DNA from: Lysobacteraceae bacterium
GTDB lineage: Bacteria > Pseudomonadota > Gammaproteobacteria > Xanthomonadales > Ahniellaceae
Assembly: GCA_021299185.1 (NCBI GenBank)
Contig: JAJTHZ010000114.1
Coordinates: 1 to 64,000, forward strand
Direction: 5' to 3'
DNA: 64,000 nucleotides
Both the position numbers and the translations under genes were made by a program. Shown here in pieces: positions 8,609 through 59,946 of the stretch (within the stretch, counting starts at the first letter, position 1; each line of letters opens with the position of its first letter). The notes beneath the pieces are model-generated. The model was not told the origin of the DNA. It was given only the letters and a program-made list of their open reading frames with translations, and ran no database searches.

Positions 8609-8983
8609 ATGGCTTCGCCTGCCGTTTCCGGACCGCAACGAAACCCGCGCACGCCATCCGCGCGCCGACGGCCGTCCTGGCACGGTCGGCTCGCCGGGCT
8701 CTGGCTGCTCGCGCTCTCCATGCCCGCCCTCCAGGCCAAGGACTGCCCTAACGTGGTCGAGCCCGACCTCGTCTCCGGCCGCGGCCTGCCCTATGCCGAA
8801 TCCGACAAGATCCTGCAGCAGGCTCGGCGTGTCGGCGTGCCGGCGACGCGCATCCCCCTGGAAGACGCGGGGCATACCGCCTTCGCCGCGCTGTTCAGCA
8901 GCCCCCCCGACGGCGAAACGCCCGTGTGGGACGCGGTGGTCGCCTTCTTCGACCGCGAACTCGGGGTGCAGCGCGCCCCCTGA
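8609..8983 (+). pseudogene. Probable remnant: signal peptide joined to an alpha/beta-hydrolase C-terminal part
   Basis: The ATG at 8609 opens a 124-residue frame with a twin-Arg-rich start and a hydrophobic stretch LAGLWLLALSMPALQA that looks like a signal peptide. The rest (PYAESDKILQQARRVGVPAT, then LEDAGHTAF and WDAVVAFFDRELG) matches the last 60-70 residues of alpha/beta hydrolases of the dipeptidyl-peptidase type, including the catalytic-His-like GHT. No nucleophile-elbow domain exists upstream, where acnD occupies the opposite strand. It is either a decayed hydrolase or a short secreted protein; the former seems likelier. No clear ribosome site is seen. Confidence 0.4.
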
Positions 8984-9011
8984 GCCCGCGCGAGGGGTTC
9001 GCGCAGGGGCG

Positions 9012-9040
9012 TGACAGGTTTTGGCGCGATCTTGCGCGTA
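9012..9040 (+). promoter_or_regulatory. Candidate ECF-sigma promoter, copy A (TGACAGGTTT-N14-GCGTA)
   Basis: TGACAGGTTT at 9012-9021 and GCGTA at 9036-9040 are separated by 14 nt. The same two blocks with the same spacing occur upstream of the secreted-protein gene at 13250, on the other side of the sigma factor/kinase pair. The start codon it would serve (9191) lies about 150 nt downstream. Its use by the neighbouring sigma factor is an inference from conservation and position. Confidence 0.5.
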
Positions 9041-9190
9041 GTGATCCAGGACCCGACGACGGTGCTGCCCTCCGGGTGGCGCCAAGGAGCGGTCCTGCGT
9101 CCTGGACGCGCACGGAAGCGGGCCATGGATGGCCCCCAACCACCTCACGCCGGCGACAGGAAACGTCGCCATCACCCACAAGGAGTTGCC

Positions 9191-9346
9191 ATGAAGAAGC
9201 CGAACACGCGCCGCCTCGCCCTCGCCTCGGGCGTGGCGCTGGCCCTGATCTCGCTCGCCGCCTGGGCCGGCGGCCCGTCCGAGTCGGGCGTCTGCCCGAA
9301 CGATCCCTGGTGGCTGTGGGAACATATCGTCTGCCTGTTCACCTGA
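9191..9346 (+). CDS. Short secreted peptide, 51 residues
   Basis: An ATG with a strong ribosome site (AAGGAG at 9180-9185, 5 nt from the ATG) encodes 51 residues. A signal peptide (KKPNTRRLALASGVALALISLAAWA) is followed by a mature part of about 25 residues containing two cysteines (VCPNDPWWLWEHIVCLF) and four tryptophans. The larger in-frame frame from 9011 has no ribosome site and no family match, so it was rejected. The gene has its own hairpin 11 bp after the stop and the candidate ECF promoter upstream. Function unknown; a small disulphide-bonded periplasmic or exported peptide is plausible. Confidence 0.65.
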   Translation: MKKPNTRRLALASGVALALISLAAWAGGPSESGVCPNDPWWLWEHIVCLFT

Positions 9347-9356
9347 GCACCGGTCG

Positions 9357-9378
9357 CCGGGGGACATCCGTCCCCCGG
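9357..9378 (+). terminator. GC-rich hairpin after the small peptide gene
   Basis: CCGGGGGAC (9357-9365), a 4-nt loop, then GTCCCCCGG (9370-9378) form a perfect 9-bp stem starting 11 bp after the stop. There is no run of T afterwards, so intrinsic termination is likely but unproven. Confidence 0.5.
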
Positions 9379-9438
9379 CCCCGGCCATCGGTCCGCCACA
9401 AATCCGATAACGTCGCGGTCCTCCAGCCTTCCCCAGCG

Positions 9439-9882
9439 ATGACGCCCATGGTCACTTCCACCCTCGCGGTTTCCGTACTTTCCGCTTCCATACTGGCGTC
9501 GGGCCCCAACCCGGAGCCGCCTCCACTGTGCGACATCGCGAAGAGTTGCACGGGCGGTCATTACTTCACGATCGGAAAGAACTCGCTGTGCAAAAGTCTC
9601 AGCTGCAGCGACGAACCGCCTCCGGATGTGGACATCGACTGTTACGGGGGACCCTATGCCTTCACCTGCGAGGCCTGGCCGCGTGGCGACGGTCTGACCT
9701 ATGGCTGGTCGGCGTGGCCGGGCAGCGTCGCCGGCCCCGGCTGGAGCGGGCTGCCCTATGCCAGCGCGAGCTGCGCCAGCAACGGCCCGTTCAATGTGTT
9801 GGTCAGCGTGACCTCACCCTTCGGCCTGTCGTCCCATGCCTCGATCACGGTGGAGTGCGGCGTCGAACGCGTGCCCGAGTGA
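9439..9882 (+). CDS. Secreted Ig/PKD-like protein, 147 residues
   Basis: ATG 9439 gives 147 residues with a signal peptide (MVTSTLAVSVLSASILASG) and a mature domain with ten cysteines. The second half (FTCEAWPRGDGLTYGWSAWPG, then CASNGPFNVLVSVTSPFGLSS and ASITVEC) has the Y-x-W and paired-Cys pattern of PKD/Ig-like beta-sandwich domains. Such domains occur in exported adhesins and enzymes. Here the domain stands alone, with no catalytic or anchoring part. The frame continues upstream to 8926 but without signal peptide or family features, so the start at the signal peptide was chosen. It is convergent with the kinase gene. Function unknown. Confidence 0.65.
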   Translation: MTPMVTSTLAVSVLSASILASGPNPEPPPLCDIAKSCTGGHYFTIGKNSLCKSLSCSDEPPPDVDIDCYGGPYAFTCEAWPRGDGLTYGWSAWPGSVAGPGWSGLPYASASCASNGPFNVLVSVTSPFGLSSHASITVECGVERVPE

Positions 9883-9915
9883 CGCGACGACGGGCCCCCG
9901 ACCGCCCCCACGCGC

Positions 9916-12504
9916 TCATTGCTGTGCCAGCACGTCGATCCGCGCCTGCAGGCGATCGACCGACGCCGCAAGTGAGGGGCAGGCGCACCCCGGCGCGGCG
10001 CGTGCCGCGTCCTTGTCGTTGCAGGCAGCCTCCGGTGGTGTGATCGCACTGCCGCAGCGCCGCTGCAGCACGTCGCGCCCCAGGCTCGCGAGCCCCTGCA
10101 GGTTGCCCAATTCGTCGTCGATGTCGCTCGCGAGCGCATGCGGCGTGGTCAGCAGCCGCAGCAACTCGTCCCAGCGGCCGTCGCGCGCCAGCCACGTCCC
10201 CAGCGTATGGCGGAAGTAGTTGGCGGCACTGCGCCCGGGTGCCAGGCTGCGCTCGGCGTCGCGCACCACGCTCTGCAACAGTTCGACGGCCTCCTCCGAG
10301 CGCGCCGGCTCCCGCGCGGTCAGCACGGCGAGATTGAACCCCAGCCGCAGGGTCCGGATGTGGCCGGCGCCGAGGGTGCGCTGCCAGTTGGCGTGCGCGC
10401 GAGCGAAAGCCTCGCGCGCCGCCTCGATCTGGCCCACGCGATGCAGCATGAATGCGCGGGTTGACTCGAGGTAGCCGGTCATCGGGCTATCGACGCCGTG
10501 CGCCTCGATCAGGCGCGATTCGATCCGCGCGTATTCATCCAGCAGTCGGTCGATCGGGGTCGCCGGATCGGCGCGGCGCAGCAGTTCGACCTGGGTCGAC
10601 AGCACGCTCGGATGGGAATCGCCCAACCGCGCCTGCTGCCGCGCCAGCAGTTCGCGCAGCGCGGCGTGCGCGGGCCCACCGCGATCCTGGCCGGCCAGCG
10701 CCGCGGCGAGTTCCTCGCGCGCGAGGGTCTCGGCCGTGCCCAGTTCGCCGGTTGCGAGCAGGGCCACCGCCTCCGTGGCCAGCGCCTCGGCGCGCGGGAA
10801 ATCGCGCCGCAGGTTCGCCAGCCGCGCCTGCGCCGCCAGCAGTTCGCCGCGGCCCGCGTCGGTGGCGGGACGCGCGGCGGCGAGCAGGCGCTCGGCACCC
10901 GCATCGTCCCCCGCCGACATCAGCGCGCGCGCCGCCAGCACGCGAAGGTCCGCGATGCCCGCCTCGGGCAGGCCTTCGTCTTCGGCCACCGCGATCGCCT
11001 GCAGCGCGATCTCGGCCGCCCGGGTCTCCGACAGGCCGTTCAGTTCGACCCGCGCCAAGGTCCGGCTCAGGCGCAGGAACACCGCCGGCTGGCTCGCCTG
11101 CAGGGTGGCGATGCGCTCGCGCGCAGTCTGCAGCACCTCGCGCACCGACAGGGCTTCGCCGCGCAGGCCGGTGGGGTCGGCGCCGAGCAAGGCCTCCTCG
11201 AGCAGCAGCACCGCCTGTTCGGCCTGCACGCGCTGCTCGCGCAGCGCGATGTTCTGCCGCGTGACGAGCACGATGCCGACGAGCAGCGACAGCCCCAGCG
11301 CGGCGGCCAGCGGCACCGTCACCCGATGGCGCAGCAGGAACAGCCGGGCGCGGTACCAGCGCCCGGTCCCGCGCGCGCGGACGGCGCGGTGGTTCATCCA
11401 GGCCTCGAGGTCGGCGCACAGTTCCGACACCTCGCGATAGCGCTCCTCCGGGCGCTTGCGCAGGCAGCGGGCGATGATCGCGTCGAGGTCGCCGCGCAGT
11501 CGCGTCGCCCACGGCACGCCAGCGACCGCGGCCGCCGCGCTGGCCGGCTCGGGCGCACGGCCCAGCACCGGGCGTTCGACCTCGGCGGCGCGCAGGCCGT
11601 CGACCACGAACACCGGGCGACCGGCGACCAGCGCGTACAGCAGCGTCCCCAGGCCGTAGACGTCGCAGCCGACGCCGGTCGGCTCGCCGAGCAGTTGTTC
11701 CGGCGCCGCGGTGGCCGGCGAGAACCAGCGCTCGCCGGTGCGCGTGACGCCCGGATGGCCGGGCTCGATCCACTTGCCGATCCCGAAGTCGAGCAGCTTC
11801 GGATCGCCCTCGTCGGTCACCAGCACGTTGGCCGGCTTGATGTCGCGGTGCACGACCAGTCGCTGGTGCGCATGGCCGACCGCGCGCGCCACCCGCAGCA
11901 CCAGCGCCACGCGCTGTTCCAGCGACAGTCCGCGCGCCGCGCAGTGGGCGTCGATGGGCATGCCGTCGACGTACTCCATCACCACGTAGGGCAGCCCGCT
12001 GTCGAGCCGGCCGGCATCGAGGAAGGCACAGATCCCCGGGTGCTGCAGGCTGGCGAGGATCCGGTGCTCGGCCGAGAAGCGCGACAGCAGGCCATCGTTC
12101 GACTGCAGCGGATGGAGCACCTTGATCGCCACCGTGCGCGGCGTCGCCGGATCGGCGAACCGCGCGCGGTAGACGCGCCCCATGCCCCCGGCGCCGACGA
12201 GTTGTTCGATCACATAGCGATCGACGCGCGAGCCCGGTGCGAGCGCGCGCTCGAAGGCCTCGAGCGCCGCACCGAGCCCTGCGCGGCCGTCCAGCGACTC
12301 CAGCCGCGACGGGCGCGCGTCCTCGGCCAGCAGACCGGCGACCGCATCGGCCAGCGCCGGGTCGTCCGCGCGCAGGCGCGCGAGGTGGTCGGCGACCTCG
12401 GCCAGCGGCAGGTCGAGGCAGGCCATGAAATGCGCCTGCAGGGCGGCGAAACGCGCGGCCTCGCCGGCGTCGGCGCCGCCCGTGGCGGGATCCGGTTCCG
12501 TCAT
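9916..12504 (-). CDS. Membrane Ser/Thr protein kinase with TPR-like sensor domain
   Basis: An 862-residue Hanks-type kinase. The kinase domain spans about residues 97-370: Gly-loop GAGGMGRVY (104-112), catalytic Lys128, HRDIKPANV (219-227) and DFG (239-241). One membrane segment follows (VTVPLAAALGLSLLVGIVLV, about 395-415). The remaining 450 residues are helical TPR-like repeats, ending in a Cys-containing tail, on the far side of the membrane. The ATG overlaps the stop of the ECF sigma gene (ATGA, 12501-12504). Sigma/kinase pairs of this kind (for example EcfK-PknS of Xanthomonas) control the sigma factor by phosphorylation. This kinase most likely senses an envelope signal and activates its partner (inference). 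In-frame sequence upstream of 12504 lies inside the sigma gene. Confidence 0.9.
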   Translation of the reverse strand: MTEPDPATGGADAGEAARFAALQAHFMACLDLPLAEVADHLARLRADDPALADAVAGLLAEDARPSRLESLDGRAGLGAALEAFERALAPGSRVDRYVIEQLVGAGGMGRVYRARFADPATPRTVAIKVLHPLQSNDGLLSRFSAEHRILASLQHPGICAFLDAGRLDSGLPYVVMEYVDGMPIDAHCAARGLSLEQRVALVLRVARAVGHAHQRLVVHRDIKPANVLVTDEGDPKLLDFGIGKWIEPGHPGVTRTGERWFSPATAAPEQLLGEPTGVGCDVYGLGTLLYALVAGRPVFVVDGLRAAEVERPVLGRAPEPASAAAAVAGVPWATRLRGDLDAIIARCLRKRPEERYREVSELCADLEAWMNHRAVRARGTGRWYRARLFLLRHRVTVPLAAALGLSLLVGIVLVTRQNIALREQRVQAEQAVLLLEEALLGADPTGLRGEALSVREVLQTARERIATLQASQPAVFLRLSRTLARVELNGLSETRAAEIALQAIAVAEDEGLPEAGIADLRVLAARALMSAGDDAGAERLLAAARPATDAGRGELLAAQARLANLRRDFPRAEALATEAVALLATGELGTAETLAREELAAALAGQDRGGPAHAALRELLARQQARLGDSHPSVLSTQVELLRRADPATPIDRLLDEYARIESRLIEAHGVDSPMTGYLESTRAFMLHRVGQIEAAREAFARAHANWQRTLGAGHIRTLRLGFNLAVLTAREPARSEEAVELLQSVVRDAERSLAPGRSAANYFRHTLGTWLARDGRWDELLRLLTTPHALASDIDDELGNLQGLASLGRDVLQRRCGSAITPPEAACNDKDAARAAPGCACPSLAASVDRLQARIDVLAQQ

Positions 12505-13061
12505 GGCCCCAGTCGACTGCCCAGCCACGAGCGCGCGAAACGCCACTGGCGGTTCACGGTCGACTCGGAGGTTTCGAGCACCTGCGCGACCTCCTCGACG
12601 GTGAGCCCGCCGAACACGCGCATTTCCACCACCCGCGCGCAGCCGGCGTCGAGGCGGCCGAGTTCCGACAAGGCGCGGTCGATCTCCAGCCAGTCCGACG
12701 ACGCGGCGGCGGCGGCGGCCTCGCCCGGCAGCAGGTCGTCGAGCGCGACGTGGACCACGTCCTCGCCGCGCTTCTGGCTGCCCTTGCGGCGCAGGTGGTC
12801 GACCAGGAAGCGCCGGATCACGGTCGCCGCGATGGCGAAGAAGTGCACGCGGTCGTTGACGTCCGCGAAGTCCTGCTCGCGCAGCCGTTCGAAGGCCTCG
12901 TGCACGACCTCCGTCGACTGCAGGGTCTGCACGCCCGGGAAGCGCCGCAGCTGGCGCTCGGCCACCGCGTGGATCTCCGGGTAGAGCCGCTCGACCAGCA
13001 GGGCCTCGACCCCGGCGTCGGCCCCCTTCCAGCGGCGAAGCATCTGCGTCAGTTCGGACAC
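12501..13061 (-). CDS. ECF-type sigma factor (TIGR02999-like) paired with the kinase
   Basis: A 186-residue RNA polymerase sigma factor of the ECF subfamily. Region 2 is STEVVHEAFERLREQDFADVN and HFFAIAATVIRRFLVDHLRR; region 4 is VVEMRVFGGLTVEEVAQVLETSESTVNRQW. The start chosen is GTG 13061, with GAGGA about 7 nt upstream. The frame extends to 13178 with a low-complexity Arg-rich stretch unlike the family. No anti-sigma gene is present; the coupled kinase downstream takes that place. Two nearby genes share a promoter-like element that could be its target. Confidence 0.9.
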   Translation of the reverse strand: MSELTQMLRRWKGADAGVEALLVERLYPEIHAVAERQLRRFPGVQTLQSTEVVHEAFERLREQDFADVNDRVHFFAIAATVIRRFLVDHLRRKGSQKRGEDVVHVALDDLLPGEAAAAAASSDWLEIDRALSELGRLDAGCARVVEMRVFGGLTVEEVAQVLETSESTVNRQWRFARSWLGSRLGP

Positions 13062-13177
13062 CACGGCGTCCTCGGTTCTCGACGGGCCGCGATCATACCG
13101 GCGCCGGCGCGCACGCCGGGCAAGCCGGGGACGAGGTGTCGTGATGGCGCTGGCCCGCGGCGGCCGGGTCCGGGGCA

Positions 13178-13206
13178 TGACAGGTTTCCGGGTCGTCGTG
13201 CGCGTA
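13178..13206 (+). promoter_or_regulatory. Candidate ECF-sigma promoter, copy B (TGACAGGTTT-N14-GCGTA)
   Basis: TGACAGGTTT at 13178-13187 and GCGTA at 13202-13206 repeat copy A exactly in both blocks and in the 14-nt spacing. It lies 43 nt upstream of the ATG at 13250 and points away from the divergent sigma gene. A small hairpin (GCGGGG...CCCCGC, about 13217-13234) lies between it and the start. Confidence 0.55.
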
Positions 13207-13249
13207 AGCCCATGCCGCGGGGAATCGTCCCCGCCCTGGAGAAACCGCC

Positions 13250-13897
13250 ATGCCCCGCCCCGATCGCTCCATCGCGCTCCTGCTCACCCTCCTGCTGGCC
13301 GGCCCTGCCTTCGCAACGGACGCGGACAGCAACCGGGCGGCGGCGCTTGCCGACCTCGCCGACACCGATGGCGATGGCGTGGCGGACGTGGTCGAACTCG
13401 CCAGCCCCGATGGCCCGGACGCCGATGCCGACGGCTGGCAGGACCACCTGCAGCCCGACCGCGTGGCGCTGCCGATCCCGGAGGGTGGCCTGCGGGGGCG
13501 ATCCAACTACGTGACGATGGACGGCGGGGCCACGCGCGGAGCGCCCGCAGCGGGCTGCGGCGGCTTCGACGACGTGCGGTTCGTCGACTTCAGCGAGATC
13601 CCGGTGTCACCACCGGCGCGGCTGTTGCCGGCCCTCGACGGCGTGCTGTCGATCCGCATCGCGGACTGCCCGTGGTTCCCGCTCCGGCTGACGCTGCCGT
13701 CCCTGGGCGTGCCGGTGGAGAAGCTGGTTTTCTTCGCCTACGGCGCGGGACCCGACGATTCCCTGCCGGCCTGGCACCGGCTGCCGGCAGCCGCGGACCA
13801 CGACCGCGCCACGCTGCTGCTGCAGGACGGCGGCGTGGGTGACCTCGGTGCGGCCGGCGACCTGCACTACCGGATCGCCGTCATGCGCGAGCGCTGA
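13250..13897 (+). CDS. Secreted protein with Ca-binding DxDxDG repeats and a choice-of-anchor-like domain
   Basis: A 215-residue exported protein. The signal peptide is MPRPDRSIALLLTLLLAGPAFA. Two calcium-loop repeats follow (DTDGDGVADVVEL and DADADGWQDH), of the thrombospondin type 3 kind. The C-terminal 130 residues (from NYVTMDGG to DLHYRIAVMRER) resemble the choice-of-anchor U domain found beside sorting tails in gammaproteobacterial surface proteins. No tail follows here. GGAGAAA lies 5 nt before the ATG. The candidate ECF promoter upstream suggests it is part of the output of the neighbouring sigma/kinase pair (inference). Confidence 0.7.
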   Translation: MPRPDRSIALLLTLLLAGPAFATDADSNRAAALADLADTDGDGVADVVELASPDGPDADADGWQDHLQPDRVALPIPEGGLRGRSNYVTMDGGATRGAPAAGCGGFDDVRFVDFSEIPVSPPARLLPALDGVLSIRIADCPWFPLRLTLPSLGVPVEKLVFFAYGAGPDDSLPAWHRLPAAADHDRATLLLQDGGVGDLGAAGDLHYRIAVMRER

Positions 13898-13914
13898 ACG
13901 GAGGCCATGCATCG

Positions 13915-13933
13915 CGCGGGCGTGCCGCCCGCG
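13915..13933. terminator. Hairpin between convergent genes
   Basis: CGCGGGCG, loop TGC, CGCCCGCG is a perfect 8-bp stem in the 58-bp gap between the secreted protein gene and the RND gene, which converge here. It may end transcription from both sides; no T-run is present. Confidence 0.45.
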
Positions 13934-13955
13934 TGCGACGGGCCGCCAGCGCGCC

Positions 13956-16900
13956 TCAGGCAGCCCCGGTGCCGTCGGCCTCCCGCGGCGTGGCCTGCGC
14001 GCGCGGGCGCCGCGTGATCCGCGCCACCAGTCGCTCCGCAGCGGGCACCACGATCAGGTACAGGCACGGCACCAGCAACAGGGTCAGCAGCATCGACGAC
14101 AGCAGGCCGCCCACCACCGCGACCGCCAGCGGCTGCATCAGCATGCCGCCCGAGTCCAGGCCCATCGCCAGCGGCAGCATGCCGACCACGGTGGTCAGGG
14201 TGGTCATCAGGATCGGGCGCAGGCGCACCGCGCCCGCCTCGACCAGCGCGTCCACCAGGTCGAAGCCGGCGCGACGCCGGCGCTCGATGTACTCGACCAG
14301 CAGGATCGCGTTGTTGACCACGATGCCGACCAGCAGCACAGCGCCGAGGAACACCGGCGCCGACAGCGGCGTCGAGGACAGCCACAGCGCGGCCACCGCG
14401 CCGCACAGCGCCAGCGGCGCGGCAGCCATGATCACCAGCGAGTCGGCCAGCCGCTCGTACTGCACCACCAGCACCACGAAGACCAGGAACACCGCCAGCA
14501 GGATCACGGTGTTCATCTCGCGCTCGGTCTCGACCAGGGTCTCGTACTGGCCACCGAGCGCCACACCGTACTGGTCGGGCATCTCGACGCCGGCGAGGCG
14601 CCGCTGCACCTCGGCCATGATGCTGCCGACGTCGCTGTCGGCGGTGTTGAAGCCACCGACGATGCGCTGGATGCGCAACTGGTTCTCGCGGCCGATCTCC
14701 GCCGGCCCCTCGCCGAGGGTGAAAGTCGCCACCTGCCGCGCCTGGATCGGCCCGTTGGCCCCGTTGGCGACGATCACCTCGCCGAGCCGGTCGAGGTCCT
14801 CGACCTCCTCGCGTGGCAGGCGCACGCGCACGTCGTACTCGTCGACGCCGGTGCTGTAGCGCGTCGGCACCACGCCGGTGACGGCCTGGCGCAGGGCCTG
14901 GGCGACCACGCGCACGTCGAGTCCCAGCGCGGCGGCGCGTTCGCGGTCGACCACCACCTGCAGCGCCGGCGTGCGGTCCTCGTCGTCCATCTCCACGCCT
15001 TCCAGCCCCGGCACGCCCTCGAGCGCGCGGATGATCTCGCGGGCGAGGCGCTGCAGCGTAGCGAGGTCCTCGCCCAGCACCTTGATCTCAATGTCGTTGC
15101 CGGACAGCGCGAAGTTGAGTCCGCGGGTGCCGCTGGTGCGCACCGCGATGTCCGCGCCCGCGATGTCGAGCGCCGAGACGCGCTGCTGCGCCTCGCGTGC
15201 CCAACGCCCGACCGGCCAGTCCGGTCGCTGCGCGGCATCGTCGAGCTGCACCGACAGCCAGCCGCGCGCGGCGCGCTCCGACAGACTGCCGCCCCACAGG
15301 AAGCCGCCGGACACGGCGAACACGCTGCGCACGTGCGGCATGCCGCGCAGGGTCTGTTCCACCGCGCGCGTCGCCGCATCGGTCTCGGCCGGCGTAGTGC
15401 CGGCCGGCAGCGCGATGCGCACGTTGAGGCTGCCGTCGTCCAGTTGCGGCATGAACTCGCTGCCGAGCCGGCCGGCAACCGGGATCGCGACCAACACGCT
15501 GACCAGGCCCGCGCCGACCACGGCCCAGCGCCACGGCAGCAGGCGTCGCAGCAGCCGCTGGTAGCCGCGACCGACTGCGTCCACCCCGGCGTCGAAGGCG
15601 CGGAACACGCGGCTGCGCGAAAAGCCCGAACTGAAGCCGATCCGCGCCGACTGCGCGGCCAGCATCGGCACCAGGGTCAGCGCCACGGCCAGCGACGCGA
15701 CCACGGCGAACGAGATGGTGACCAGCAGTTCGCGGAACACCAGGGTGGCGAGCCCGGTGATCAACAGGAACGGCAGCACGGCCGCCAGGTTGGTCACGGT
15801 GCCGGCGACCACCGCCGAGATCACCTCGTCGGATCCGGCGTGCGCCGCCTGCTGCGCATCCTCGCGCAGTTTCGTGCGGTGGCGCTCGATGTTCTCCAGC
15901 ATCACGATCGCATTGTCGAGCAGCAGGCCGACGCCGAGCGCGAGGCCGCCGAGGCTCATCACGTTGAGGCTCAGGCCCGCCCCACCCATCAGGGCGAAGG
16001 TGGCCATGATGGCCAGCGGGATCGACAGCCCGATCACCACGCTGCCACGCACGCTGCCGAGGAAGAACAGCACCACCAGCATCGCCAGAACCGCGCCGAG
16101 AACCGCCGCCGAGGCGACCGACGACACCGAACCACGCACGAAGTAGGCGCCGTCGCGGGTGGTGCTGAACACGATGTCCGGCGGGATGAAGCCCGAGGCG
16201 CGCAGCGAATCGAGCCGCGCCTGCACCTCGTCGACCACCTGCACGGTGTTGGCATCGGGCTGCTTGAACACCGACAACTGGGTGGCCGGCTCGCCGTTCA
16301 GGCGCACGAACACGCGCTGCTCGCGGAAGCCGTCGCGCACCTCGGCCACCTGGTCGAGCCGGATGCGCTGCTCGCTGCCGGGGATGCGCAGCAGCACCTG
16401 GGCCACGTCGTCGGCGCTGCGGAAGCGGCCTTCGGTGCGCGCGCGCACGTCGAGGCTGGTCGAGGTGATGTTGCCGGCCGAGACGTTCTGGTTCTCCGCC
16501 GCGAGCTGCGCGGCCACGTCGGCCAGGGAGAGTCCGTAGGCGCGCAGTCGCTGCTGGTCGACCACCACTTCCAGTTCGCGCTCCTGGCCGCCGACGCTGA
16601 GCACGCCGGACACGCCGGGGATCGACTGCAACTGCGGGGCGAGGCGGTTGTCGAGCCAGTCGCGCACCTCGCGGGCGCTGCGCTCGCGCGAGGAGAACCC
16701 GGCCTCGAACACGGCCGCCGCGCCGGGATCGACCTTGCTCAGCCGCGGCGGCTCGATGTCGTCCGGCAGTTGGCCGCGGGCACGTTCCAGCAGGCGCGAT
16801 GCGTCCTGCAGTGCGAGGTCGAGGTCGGTGCCGTAGCGGAACAACAGGCTGACGTCGGTGCTGCCCTCCTCCGCCTCGCTGGCCATCAGCACCAGGCCTT

Positions 16901-51417: not shown

Positions 51418-51831
51418 GAGGGCCCAGGGCCCAGGGCTCAGGGCACAGTCGAGGAACGTAGGGTGCAATGAGCGCAGCGAATTGCACCGGCTTCGATGCG
51501 GGAGCAGGGCCCAGGGTATAGGGCCCAGGCCATAGTGGCCGCTCGACATGCGCAGTCCGCAGCGCGCGGCGTCATCGGCGCGAAATCAGGGTACAGGGCC
51601 CAGGGTATAGCCGACGGTAGGGCGGGCTGCTGGCGTGCCGCACCTGAAGGGAACCACTGTCGTTCACTGTCCGTGTCGGCCCTCAGTCATCGCACCTCGC
51701 CTGTACCCTGGGCCCTATACCCTGCTCTCGGCGAACCGTGCGCCGCAATTCGCCGCGCGCCTCGCACACGACAGCCGGAACTCTGGGCCCTGGGCCCTGG
51801 GCCCTGGGCCCTGAGCCCTGGGCCCTCTGCC
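51418..51831. repeat. Inverted arrays of CCCTNNN heptamers
   Basis: The 546-bp gap between the isovaleryl-CoA dehydrogenase and thiolase genes holds five arrays built of heptamers of the form CCCTNNN (CCCTGGG, CCCTATA, CCCTGAG, CCCTGTA, CCCTCTG). Three read on the minus strand (51418-51448, 51504-51529, 51587-51610) and two on the plus strand (51701-51724, 51781-51831). The arms 51587-51610 and 51701-51724 are complementary at 22 of 24 positions. No gene is seen in the gap. Confidence 0.8.
51462..51488. repeat. Short palindrome GGTGCAAT-N11-ATTGCACC
   Basis: Perfect 8-bp arms (51462-51469 and 51481-51488) around GAGCGCAGCGA. It lies between two heptamer arrays and has the look of a small dispersed intergenic repeat. 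The sequence CTTCGATGC just after it recurs beside the second heptamer locus at 59.2 kb. Confidence 0.55.
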
Positions 51832-51954: not shown

Positions 51955-53133
51955 ATGTCGGATTCGATCGTCATCGTCGGTGCCAAGCGCACCGCCATCG
52001 GCGCCCTGCTGGGCCAGTTCACCGGCGTACCCTCGCCCGTCCTGGGCGCGACCGCGATCAAGGCGGCGGTCGAGCAGGCCGGCATCGCCCCGGCCGACGT
52101 GTCGGAAGTGATCATGGGCTGCGTGCTGCCGGCCAACCTCGGCCAGGCGCCGGCGCGGCAGGCGATGCGCCAGGCCGGCATCCCGGATGCGGCGGGCGCG
52201 ACCACCATCAACAAGGTCTGCGGCTCCGGGATGAAGGCGATCATGCTGGCCCACGACCTGATCCGGGCCGGCAGTGCGGACGTGGTGGTGGCCGGCGGCA
52301 TGGAGTCGATGACCAACGCGCCGCACCTGATCCCCAACTCGCGCGTGGGCGTGAAGTACGGCGACTTCCAGGCGATCGACCACATGGCCTGGGACGGGCT
52401 CACCAATCCGTCCGACAAGAAGGCAATGGGCGTGTTCGCCGACGCCACCGCGGCCAAGTACGGCTTCACCCGCGAACAGCAGGACGCCTATGCCGCCGAA
52501 TCGGTGCGCCGCGCGCAGGCCGCGGTCGCCACCGGCGCGTTCAAGGCCGAGATCGCGCCGGTGACCATCGCCGGGCGCAAGGGCGACGTGGTGGTCGACA
52601 CCGACGAATCCCCAGGCAAGCTCGACGCCAGCAAGATCCCCAGCCTCAAGCCGGCGTTCAGCAAGGACGGCACGGTGACCGCCGCCAGTTCGTCCAGCAT
52701 CAGCGACGGCGCGGCCGCGACCATCGTGATGCGCGAGTCGGAGGCGACCCGCCGCGGCCTGAAGCCGCTGGTGCGCATCGTCGGCCATTCGACGAACTCG
52801 CACGAGCCGGAGTGGTTCACCACCGCCCCGGTCGGGGCGATGCAGAAGCTGCTGGCCAAGGTCGGCTGGAAGGTGTCGGAGGTGGACCTGTTCGAGGTCA
52901 ACGAAGCCTTCGCCGTGGTCGCGATGGCGCCGATGAAGGACCTCGGCGTGCCGCACGAGCGGCTCAACGTCAATGGCGGCGCCTGCGCGCTTGGGCATCC
53001 GATCGGCTGCACCGGCGCGCGCCTGGTGGTCACCCTGGTGCACGCCCTGCACGCCCGCGGCGGCAAGCGCGGCGTCGCGGCGCTGTGCATCGGCGGCGGC
53101 GAAGCCACCGCGATCGCCGTGGAAGTTCCCTGA
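51955..53133 (+). CDS. atoB: Acetyl-CoA C-acetyltransferase (thiolase)
   Basis: A 392-residue thiolase of biosynthetic/degradative AtoB length. Catalytic residues are Cys89 (INKVCGSGMKA), His in GGACALGHPIG and the second Cys in AALCIGGGEA; NEAFAVVAM is the family Asn-Glu loop. It condenses or cleaves acetoacetyl-CoA, the end of the leucine route after HMG-CoA lyase and of fatty-acid and isoleucine breakdown. It lies between the dehydrogenases and methylcrotonyl-CoA carboxylase beta on the same strand. The heptamer arrays separate it from the upstream gene, so it probably has its own promoter. Confidence 0.93.
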   Translation: MSDSIVIVGAKRTAIGALLGQFTGVPSPVLGATAIKAAVEQAGIAPADVSEVIMGCVLPANLGQAPARQAMRQAGIPDAAGATTINKVCGSGMKAIMLAHDLIRAGSADVVVAGGMESMTNAPHLIPNSRVGVKYGDFQAIDHMAWDGLTNPSDKKAMGVFADATAAKYGFTREQQDAYAAESVRRAQAAVATGAFKAEIAPVTIAGRKGDVVVDTDESPGKLDASKIPSLKPAFSKDGTVTAASSSSISDGAAATIVMRESEATRRGLKPLVRIVGHSTNSHEPEWFTTAPVGAMQKLLAKVGWKVSEVDLFEVNEAFAVVAMAPMKDLGVPHERLNVNGGACALGHPIGCTGARLVVTLVHALHARGGKRGVAALCIGGGEATAIAVEVP

Positions 53134-57460: not shown

Positions 57461-57717
57461 ACACCACCCTCGCCGCGGTGCGTGAGGTGCCGGCCGCGCG
57501 CAAGCGCGGTCTTGCATCCCGCCTTTCGTAGGAGCCCGCTTGCGGGCGACCGCCACCCCCATCCTCGCCGCGACGTGCGAGGTGCCGGTCGCCCGCAAGC
57601 GCGCTCCTACGTGCGACCGTCCGTAGGAGCCCGCTCGCGGGCGACCGCCACCCCCATCCTCGCCGCGACGCGCGAGGTGCCGGTCGCGCGCAAGCGCGCT
57701 CCTACGTGCGACCGCCC
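57461..57717. repeat. Tandem 95-bp REP/BIME elements
   Basis: Two near-identical 95-bp copies (57528-57622 and 57623-57717) follow a partial third (57461-57518). Each has outward-reading arms beginning GTAGGAGCCCGC and ending GCGCTCCTAC; in copy 1 they are 57528-57551 and 57587-57610, complementary at 23 of 24 positions, around a CG-rich loop. This is the REP type of Xanthomonad genomes, normally spread by a RAYT transposase encoded elsewhere. It fills the space between the aminotransferase start and the next gene. Confidence 0.85.
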
Positions 57718-59382: not shown

Positions 59383-59946
59383 ATGAAAGCCTACGACATC
59401 AAACGCGGCAACGTCGTCGAACACAACGGCACCACCTACCAGGTGCGCGCGGTGGAACGCAGCGCGCCGACCGGTCGCGGCGGCAACACCACGTATCGCT
59501 TCCAGCTCTACAGCGTGCCGGGCGGCGTGAAGCTCGACCTGAGCCTGCGCGCCGACGACGAACTGCCGGAGGTGGACCTCACCCGGCGCACGGCGACCTT
59601 CTCCTACCGCGAAGGCGACAACTTCGTGTTCATGGACGCCGAGGACTACACCCAGTACCTGCTCGGCCCGGAGATCGTCGGCGAACTCGCCGGCTACATC
59701 ACCGAGGGCATGGAGGACTGCCAGGTCATGCTCAAGGACGACGCGCCGATCAGCCTGCAACTGCCCCAGCACGTGACGCTGGCGGTGGTCGAAACCGCGC
59801 CGGAACTGAAGGGCGCGACCGCCACCAAGCGGCCCAAGCCCGCCAAGCTGGAGACCGGCATCGAGATCCAGGTGCCGGAGTACATCGTCAACGGCGAGAA
59901 GATCCGCATCAGCACCGAGACCGGCGAGTTCGCCGGCCGCGCCTGA
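59383..59946 (+). CDS. efpL: Elongation factor P-like protein EfpL (YeiP)
   Basis: A 187-residue EF-P paralogue. The tip of domain I reads [14 protein letters not shown] with Arg32 where EF-P has its modified Lys; this is the YeiP/EfpL signature. Domains II and III follow ([18 protein letters not shown]-like [14 protein letters not shown] and [13 protein letters not shown]). EfpL helps ribosomes through proline-containing stalls alongside EF-P. No modification enzymes are expected to be needed. The heptamer hairpin lies just upstream and could affect its expression. Confidence 0.93.

What the first reader, a model, noticed from the sequence alone, without database searches (positions are those of the whole stretch)
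9012..13206. Identical promoter-like element on both sides of an ECF sigma/kinase pair
TGACAGGTTT-N14-GCGTA occurs at 9012-9040 and 13178-13206 with the same spacing, both upstream of genes for small signal-peptide proteins, and I found no other copy in 64 kb. The elements flank a sigma factor fused by overlap to a membrane Ser/Thr kinase that lacks an anti-sigma. This looks like a local regulon in which the kinase licenses the sigma factor to express exported Cys-rich and calcium-binding proteins.
Basis: partly seen in the sequence, partly recalled or inferred. Interest (0 to 1): 0.75.

Follow-up and report, generated by a model that had tools for sequence, protein, structure and literature searches.

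The report
Kinase-coupled sigma factor's local promoters
Two matching stretches of DNA on either side of a sigma-factor/kinase gene pair are very probably promoters that this pair uses to switch on neighbouring genes for exported proteins; the same genome carries about twenty such pairs, several with their own slightly different promoter, so the parts are of a known kind but I found no earlier description of the promoters or their locus-by-locus variation.

Summary
TGACAGGTTT-N14-GCGTA occurs at 9012-9040 and 13178-13206 and nowhere else in the 4.84 Mb draft genome. It extends to GGGGC[GA]TGACAGGTTT-N12-TGCGCGTA. The identity alone would not convince, because many bipartite pairs arise by chance in this GC-rich window. 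Independent evidence makes it real. The generalised element TGWYAGG-N16-18-CGTA has nine genomic matches: seven at three loci of the same sigma family and two elsewhere. All nine stand 29-150 bp upstream of, and co-oriented with, an exported-protein gene (eight) or a sigma gene (one). Twelve off-spacings give only five matches. The related module of Aquimonas voraii keeps GGGGCGTGA-N18-TGCGCGTAA upstream of a small Cys-rich exported peptide. The sigma factor (TIGR02999/PF07638) shows the ECF43 features I could test, including the phospho-acceptor Thr. The kinase has the PknS layout, and its best PDB match is PknS (9EED). Absence of an anti-sigma is that group's norm. The Cys-rich protein at 9439-9882 is conserved beside the kinase in at least five relatives. 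Best model: envelope signal, kinase phosphorylates sigma, sigma transcribes adjacent exported-protein genes. Phosphorylation, start sites and sigma-promoter pairing are inferred.

The parts
9006..9040 (+). Element 1: GGGGCGTGACAGGTTT-N12-TGCGCGTA-containing ECF-type promoter (predicted), 150 nt before ATG 9191
13172..13206 (+). Element 2: same element, 43 nt before ATG 13250
9191..9346 (+). 51-aa signal-peptide ORF, two Cys in the short mature part; predicted target of element 1
   Evidence: no Pfam or NCBIfam match
9356..9379 (+). Strong GC hairpin (GCCGGGGGACATCCGTCCCCCGGC) without T-run between the 51-aa gene and the Cys-rich gene
   Evidence: not reported by the terminator scan
9439..9882 (+). 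147-aa Cys-rich exported protein ('CEAWP' protein), conserved beside the kinase in related modules
9916..12504 (-). Membrane Ser/Thr kinase: kinase domain, one TM segment, C-terminal TPR region (PknS-like)
12501..13064 (-). ECF sigma factor of the TIGR02999/PF07638 family (ECF43 type), with QSTE in region 2.2; 4-nt overlap with the kinase gene
13250..13897 (+). 215-aa exported protein with acidic DxDGD-like repeats; predicted target of element 2
   Evidence: weak sub-threshold match to choice-of-anchor U

Best explanation
The two elements are promoters of an alternative RNA polymerase holoenzyme containing the adjacent ECF43-type sigma factor. TGACAGGTTT (with GGGGC in front) is the -35 region and TGCGCGTA the -10 region. 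The membrane kinase, translationally coupled to the sigma gene and carrying an extracytoplasmic TPR region, senses an envelope or extracellular condition. It phosphorylates the sigma factor, most likely at the Thr of QSTE in region 2.2, and so lets it bind core polymerase. The holoenzyme then transcribes the neighbouring exported-protein genes: the 51-aa Cys peptide, possibly with the Cys-rich 147-aa protein behind it, and the 215-aa acidic-repeat protein. Shown here: the elements, their genome-wide rarity, their position, the motif class at paralogous sigma loci, and the family membership of sigma and kinase. Inferred: that this sigma reads these elements, that phosphorylation licenses it, and what the exported proteins do.
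For: Only two exact copies in the genome, both flanking this pair. The wider class TGWYAGG-N16-18-CGTA has nine genomic matches, all 29-150 nt upstream of and co-oriented with an exported-protein gene (8) or a sigma gene (1), seven of them at three loci of this sigma family. Off-spacings N19-30 give five matches in 12 spacings, none before a signal-peptide gene; Poisson P about 7e-6. Aquimonas voraii keeps GGGGCGTGA-N18-TGCGCGTAA in its related module. CGTA at this distance resembles ECF -10 elements (general knowledge); no sigma-70-like promoter is found in 8900-14000. Sigma is TIGR02999 over cut-off with the Thr that kinases phosphorylate in ECF43. The kinase's best solved relative is PknS, 9EED, with the same kinase-TM-TPR order.
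Against: The motif is absent at other-genus orthologues with up to 56% sigma identity. The spacer here is 18, while the other class members in this genome use 16. No element precedes the window sigma gene itself, so autoregulation is not seen. Part of the consensus was built from the loci it describes; the backwards pattern has eight matches. One class member (C186) has the same TGACAGGTTT but lies far from any found sigma of this family.
Confidence: 0.66

Rival explanations
1. The elements are real ECF-type promoters, but they are read by one or more other sigma factors of the genome (another ECF43 paralogue or a general envelope ECF), and the neighbouring pair is only linked by location.
For: About 20 paralogues share the -10 block CGTA in their candidate elements, and the C186 and C53 sites lie on contigs without a detected sigma of this family.
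Against: The exact element occurs only on both sides of this pair; variants partition by locus; A. voraii keeps the element beside the related pair.
Confidence: 0.2
2. The elements bind a transcription factor (activator or repressor) and are not the promoter itself.
For: GGGGC in front of the -35 block extends the conserved part beyond a minimal promoter. No transcript data exist.
Against: Two short blocks at fixed spacing, ending in CGTA 29-150 nt before start codons and in one orientation only, are what an ECF promoter looks like; no regulator gene other than the sigma/kinase pair lies between them.
Confidence: 0.07
3. Chance similarity: two coincidentally alike stretches in a GC-rich window.
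For: Bipartite 15-letter pairs are common by chance in this window. The C215 copies partly reflect gene duplication.
Against: Nine of nine genome-wide class members are correctly placed, the spacing is non-random, and A. voraii keeps the element.
Confidence: 0.07

Closest known systems
EcfK/PknS of Xanthomonas citri (ECF43; PMC13147305)
   Same: Sigma gene next to a membrane Hanks-type kinase; kinase with N-terminal extension, kinase domain, TM and periplasmic TPR; Thr at the T51 position with a neighbouring Glu (QATE there, QSTE here); no anti-sigma. The window kinase's best PDB match is PknS, 9EED.
   Different: EcfK controls a type VI secretion cluster; here the predicted targets are small exported-protein genes on both sides of the pair. 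No EcfK promoter element was found in the paper for comparison.
EcfP/PknT of Vibrio parahaemolyticus (ECF43; PMC8999054)
   Same: Kinase-licensed sigma, region 2.2 lacking the acidic DAED motif.
   Different: EcfP has STTA without a charge and serves polymyxin resistance; the primary paper was not held.
Aquimonas voraii module (L080, NZ_FNAG01000006.1)
   Same: Small Cys-rich exported peptide, sigma, overlapping kinase, CEAWP exported protein, and the GGGGCGTGA-N18-TGCGCGTAA element upstream of the peptide.
   Different: There the CEAWP gene follows the kinase with a 4-nt overlap, and only one copy of the element was seen. In the window CEAWP is inverted relative to the kinase and two element copies flank the pair.

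Membership tests
ECF43 (kinase-coupled ECF sigma factors) | Sigma of the ECF type with regions 2 and 4 | tested here: met
   PF07638 150 bits, TIGR02999 174 bits against a cut-off of 126
ECF43 (kinase-coupled ECF sigma factors) | Adjacent gene for a Hanks-type Ser/Thr kinase, no anti-sigma | tested here: met
   Pkinase 1.7e-36, 4-nt overlap with sigma; no anti-sigma evident among the neighbours, not searched for by family
ECF43 (kinase-coupled ECF sigma factors) | Acidic region 2.2 motif replaced, with a conserved phospho-acceptor Thr (QTTA; QATE in EcfK) | tested here: met
   QSTE at residues 49-52; Thr at this place in all properly translated paralogues
ECF43 (kinase-coupled ECF sigma factors) | Placement in the ECF43 clade of the published classification | not tested
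   The classification's models are not on hand and its paper is not held
ECF43 (kinase-coupled ECF sigma factors) | Phosphorylation of sigma by the kinase and dependence of activity on it | not testable with these tools
   Needs biochemistry or genetics
ECF-type promoter | Two blocks at near-fixed spacing with a CGT-containing -10, upstream of and co-oriented with target genes | tested here: met
   Nine of nine genomic class members; off-spacing control
ECF-type promoter | Conservation at orthologous targets | tested here: inconclusive
   Partly kept in A. voraii; absent at the other-genus orthologues examined
ECF-type promoter | Transcription starts a few nt downstream of the -10 and depends on the sigma | not testable with these tools
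   No transcript data on hand

The most novel reading that the evidence does not exclude
The genome runs a set of about 20 parallel kinase-sigma channels. Each has its own promoter dialect (TGACAGGTTT, TGATAGGC, TGTCAGGT, TGTCAGG[GC]T, TGTCGC at five loci) and each serves only its adjacent exported-protein genes. Paralogous channels would thus be insulated at the promoter level, and one clade would have co-evolved with the CEAWP Cys-rich secreted protein.
Probability: 0.35. Interest if true: 0.7.

Novelty: new member of a known kind. Interest (0 to 1): 0.5.

Why it matters
Kinase-coupled sigma factors of this family are expanded in this lineage (up to about 36 matches per genome). For the few that have been studied, the searchable literature gave no promoter element and no general output. 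This work gives concrete promoter sequences, a genome-wide list of nine candidate sites, and a conserved exported partner protein. It makes testable how many similar kinase-sigma pairs avoid cross-talk. If right, the exported proteins are the physiological output and could also feed back on the kinase's extracytoplasmic sensor.

Tried and rejected
Two exact motif hits elsewhere in the order (L048, L049) lie in or beside unrelated coding frames and not before exported-protein genes; treated as chance. Off-spacing matches N19-30 were treated as chance. Looking for TGWYAGG at other-genus orthologues gave none in 98 relevant upstream regions, and de novo repeated pairs were not enriched in the relatives or in G003. 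Family-wide matches of the class in G002 and G003 are mostly in coding sequence or far from a gene start; plausible ones are few (G005:C192 before a kinase next to its sigma, G008:C26 before an exported gene). A search for TGTCGC-N14-16-CGTCGT used the wrong spacing and is uninformative. No Rfam match in the window. No solved relative of the sigma. The idea that the copies come from one duplicated intergenic region was rejected because the flanks are unrelated.

Full report
OBSERVATION. TGACAGGTTT-N14-GCGTA is present at 9012-9040 and 13178-13206 on the + strand and nowhere else in the window. It is also the only pair in the 4.84 Mb draft genome in which the window lies, even when the spacer is allowed to be 12-16. 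The two copies share more than was reported.GGGGC.TGACAGGTTT..G.G...TC.TGCGCGTA., 27 of 37 columns. Outside that the flanks are unrelated, so this does not look like a duplicated intergenic region. The identity alone is weak evidence: in this GC-rich window thousands of 10-mer/gap/5-mer pairs coincide, and about 1600 do so even in shuffled sequence. The argument has to come from elsewhere.

SURROUNDINGS. Element 1 stands 150 nt before a 51-aa signal-peptide ORF (9191-9346). Element 2 stands 43 nt before a 215-aa exported protein (13250-13897). Between them, on the - strand, lie a sigma factor (12501-13064) and a kinase (9916-12504) that overlap by 4 nt (ATGA). A further + strand gene, 9439-9882, encodes a Cys-rich exported protein; a strong GC hairpin without a T-run separates it from the 51-aa gene. 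The sigma factor is PF07638/TIGR02999. The kinase has GAGGMG, HRDIKPAN, DFG and APEQ motifs, one strongly hydrophobic TM segment and a TPR match. Its best match among solved structures is 9EED, the PknS kinase domain of Xanthomonas citri.

INDEPENDENT TEST 1: PARALOGUES IN THE SAME GENOME. The genome has 20 matches to TIGR02999 at E below 1e-30. Most have a kinase nearby, and most have an exported-protein gene as a close neighbour (read by eye). Several of these loci carry their own repeated two-block elements upstream of exported, sigma or kinase genes. C215 has four TGATAGG copies; C244 has a divergent TGTCAGGT pair facing the sigma and an exported gene; C248 has TGTCAGG[GC]T copies before an exported gene and before the kinase; C133 has TGTCGC copies. 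The common form TGWYAGG-N16-18-CGTA was then searched genome-wide. There are nine matches: the two window copies, three at C215, two at C244, and one each at C53 and C186. All nine lie 29-150 nt upstream of, and co-oriented with, an exported-protein gene (eight) or the C244 sigma gene (one). The same blocks at spacings 19-30 give five matches, none before a signal-peptide gene. That is 1.25 expected against nine observed (Poisson P about 7e-6); the two sites that played no part in building the pattern are both correctly placed (P about 4e-4). Limits: the backwards pattern has eight matches, so the raw count is not the argument; part of the consensus comes from the loci it describes; two C215 copies share their spacer and are duplications; gene calls come from a simple codon-usage caller and the signal-peptide test is crude and lenient.

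INDEPENDENT TEST 2: ORTHOLOGUES. At the nearest relatives of other genera (up to 56% identity in sigma) the motif is absent, so these promoters seem to turn over fast. One relative keeps it. In Aquimonas voraii (L080; sigma 47% identical) the module reads small Cys-rich exported peptide, thiol-disulfide-like exported protein, sigma, overlapping kinase, CEAWP protein. Upstream of the peptide lies GGGGCGTGATCAGATCGACCGCTGCGCTGCGCGTAA, with GGGGC-N-TGA and TGCGCGTA at exactly the window spacing. In 3.5 million strand-positions of fetched sequence, GGGGCNTGA-gap-TGCGCGTA with gaps 8-39 occurs only at gap 18: the two window copies and this one. The rest of the -35 block (CAGGTTT) is not conserved there, so this is a partial footprint, with its pattern chosen after the fact.

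CONSERVED PARTNER. The protein at 9439-9882 has homologues beside the kinase in L140, L141, L142, L145 and L080, a weaker one in L143, and others near sigma genes in L149 and L151. The clearest of them share a CEAWP stretch and further Cys. In A. voraii the gene overlaps the end of the kinase gene. It is therefore probably a member of the module, though in the window it is inverted relative to the kinase.

MECHANISM. ECF43 sigma factors are licensed by the neighbouring Hanks-type kinase, which phosphorylates a Thr in region 2.2 (EcfP/PknT) and, in EcfK, also the linker. The window sigma has that Thr (QSTE) and one Glu, like EcfK's QATE. The simplest reading: an envelope or extracellular signal activates the kinase, the kinase phosphorylates sigma, and the holoenzyme transcribes from elements 1 and 2. 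Sequence, position, rarity, class membership and partner conservation are shown here; phosphorylation, start sites and which sigma reads which element are inferred.

NOVELTY. The kinase-sigma pair is a new member of a known kind. Within the held literature no ECF43 promoter element was found, but the main ECF classification paper and the EcfP paper were not available, so the novelty of the promoter class is provisional. The more novel reading, many parallel channels with private promoter dialects, is consistent with five loci but not tested.

Noticed in passing
G000 C215:7414, 9908, 15821, 18424 (L031): Four paralogous exported-protein genes at a locus with two sigma genes of this family each carry a TGATAGG element; two of the elements share their spacer, so promoters appear to have been copied with the genes.
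   Followed up: partly
G000 C248 (L037:2915- and 5996-); G005:C192:871-897: TGTCAGG elements stand directly before the kinase gene of the pair, which would give the kinase its own feedback promoter.
   Followed up: partly
G000 C133 (L044:10866, 15351) and C244 (L029:4805): A second element class, TGTCGC-N13-CGTCG, near sigma loci; the genome-wide search for it used the wrong spacing.
   Followed up: partly
L192:7101 (+), genome G003: TGACAGGTTT with CGTC at spacing 16, 30 nt before an exported-protein gene in a sigma-family locus of another genus.
   Followed up: no
G000 C186:9569-9595 (-): A third TGACAGGTTT copy in the genome (spacer 16), 67 nt before a 127-aa exported-protein gene on a contig without a detected sigma of this family.
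   Followed up: partly
window 51783-51826: Array of the heptamer CTGGGCC (6.3 copies) upstream of the gene called at 51955; similar CTGGGCCCTG sequence also upstream of the gene at 59383.
   Followed up: no
window 57464-57714: 95-bp unit repeated 2.6 times, containing an inverted GCGGGC-rich stretch reminiscent of REP-type elements.
   Followed up: no
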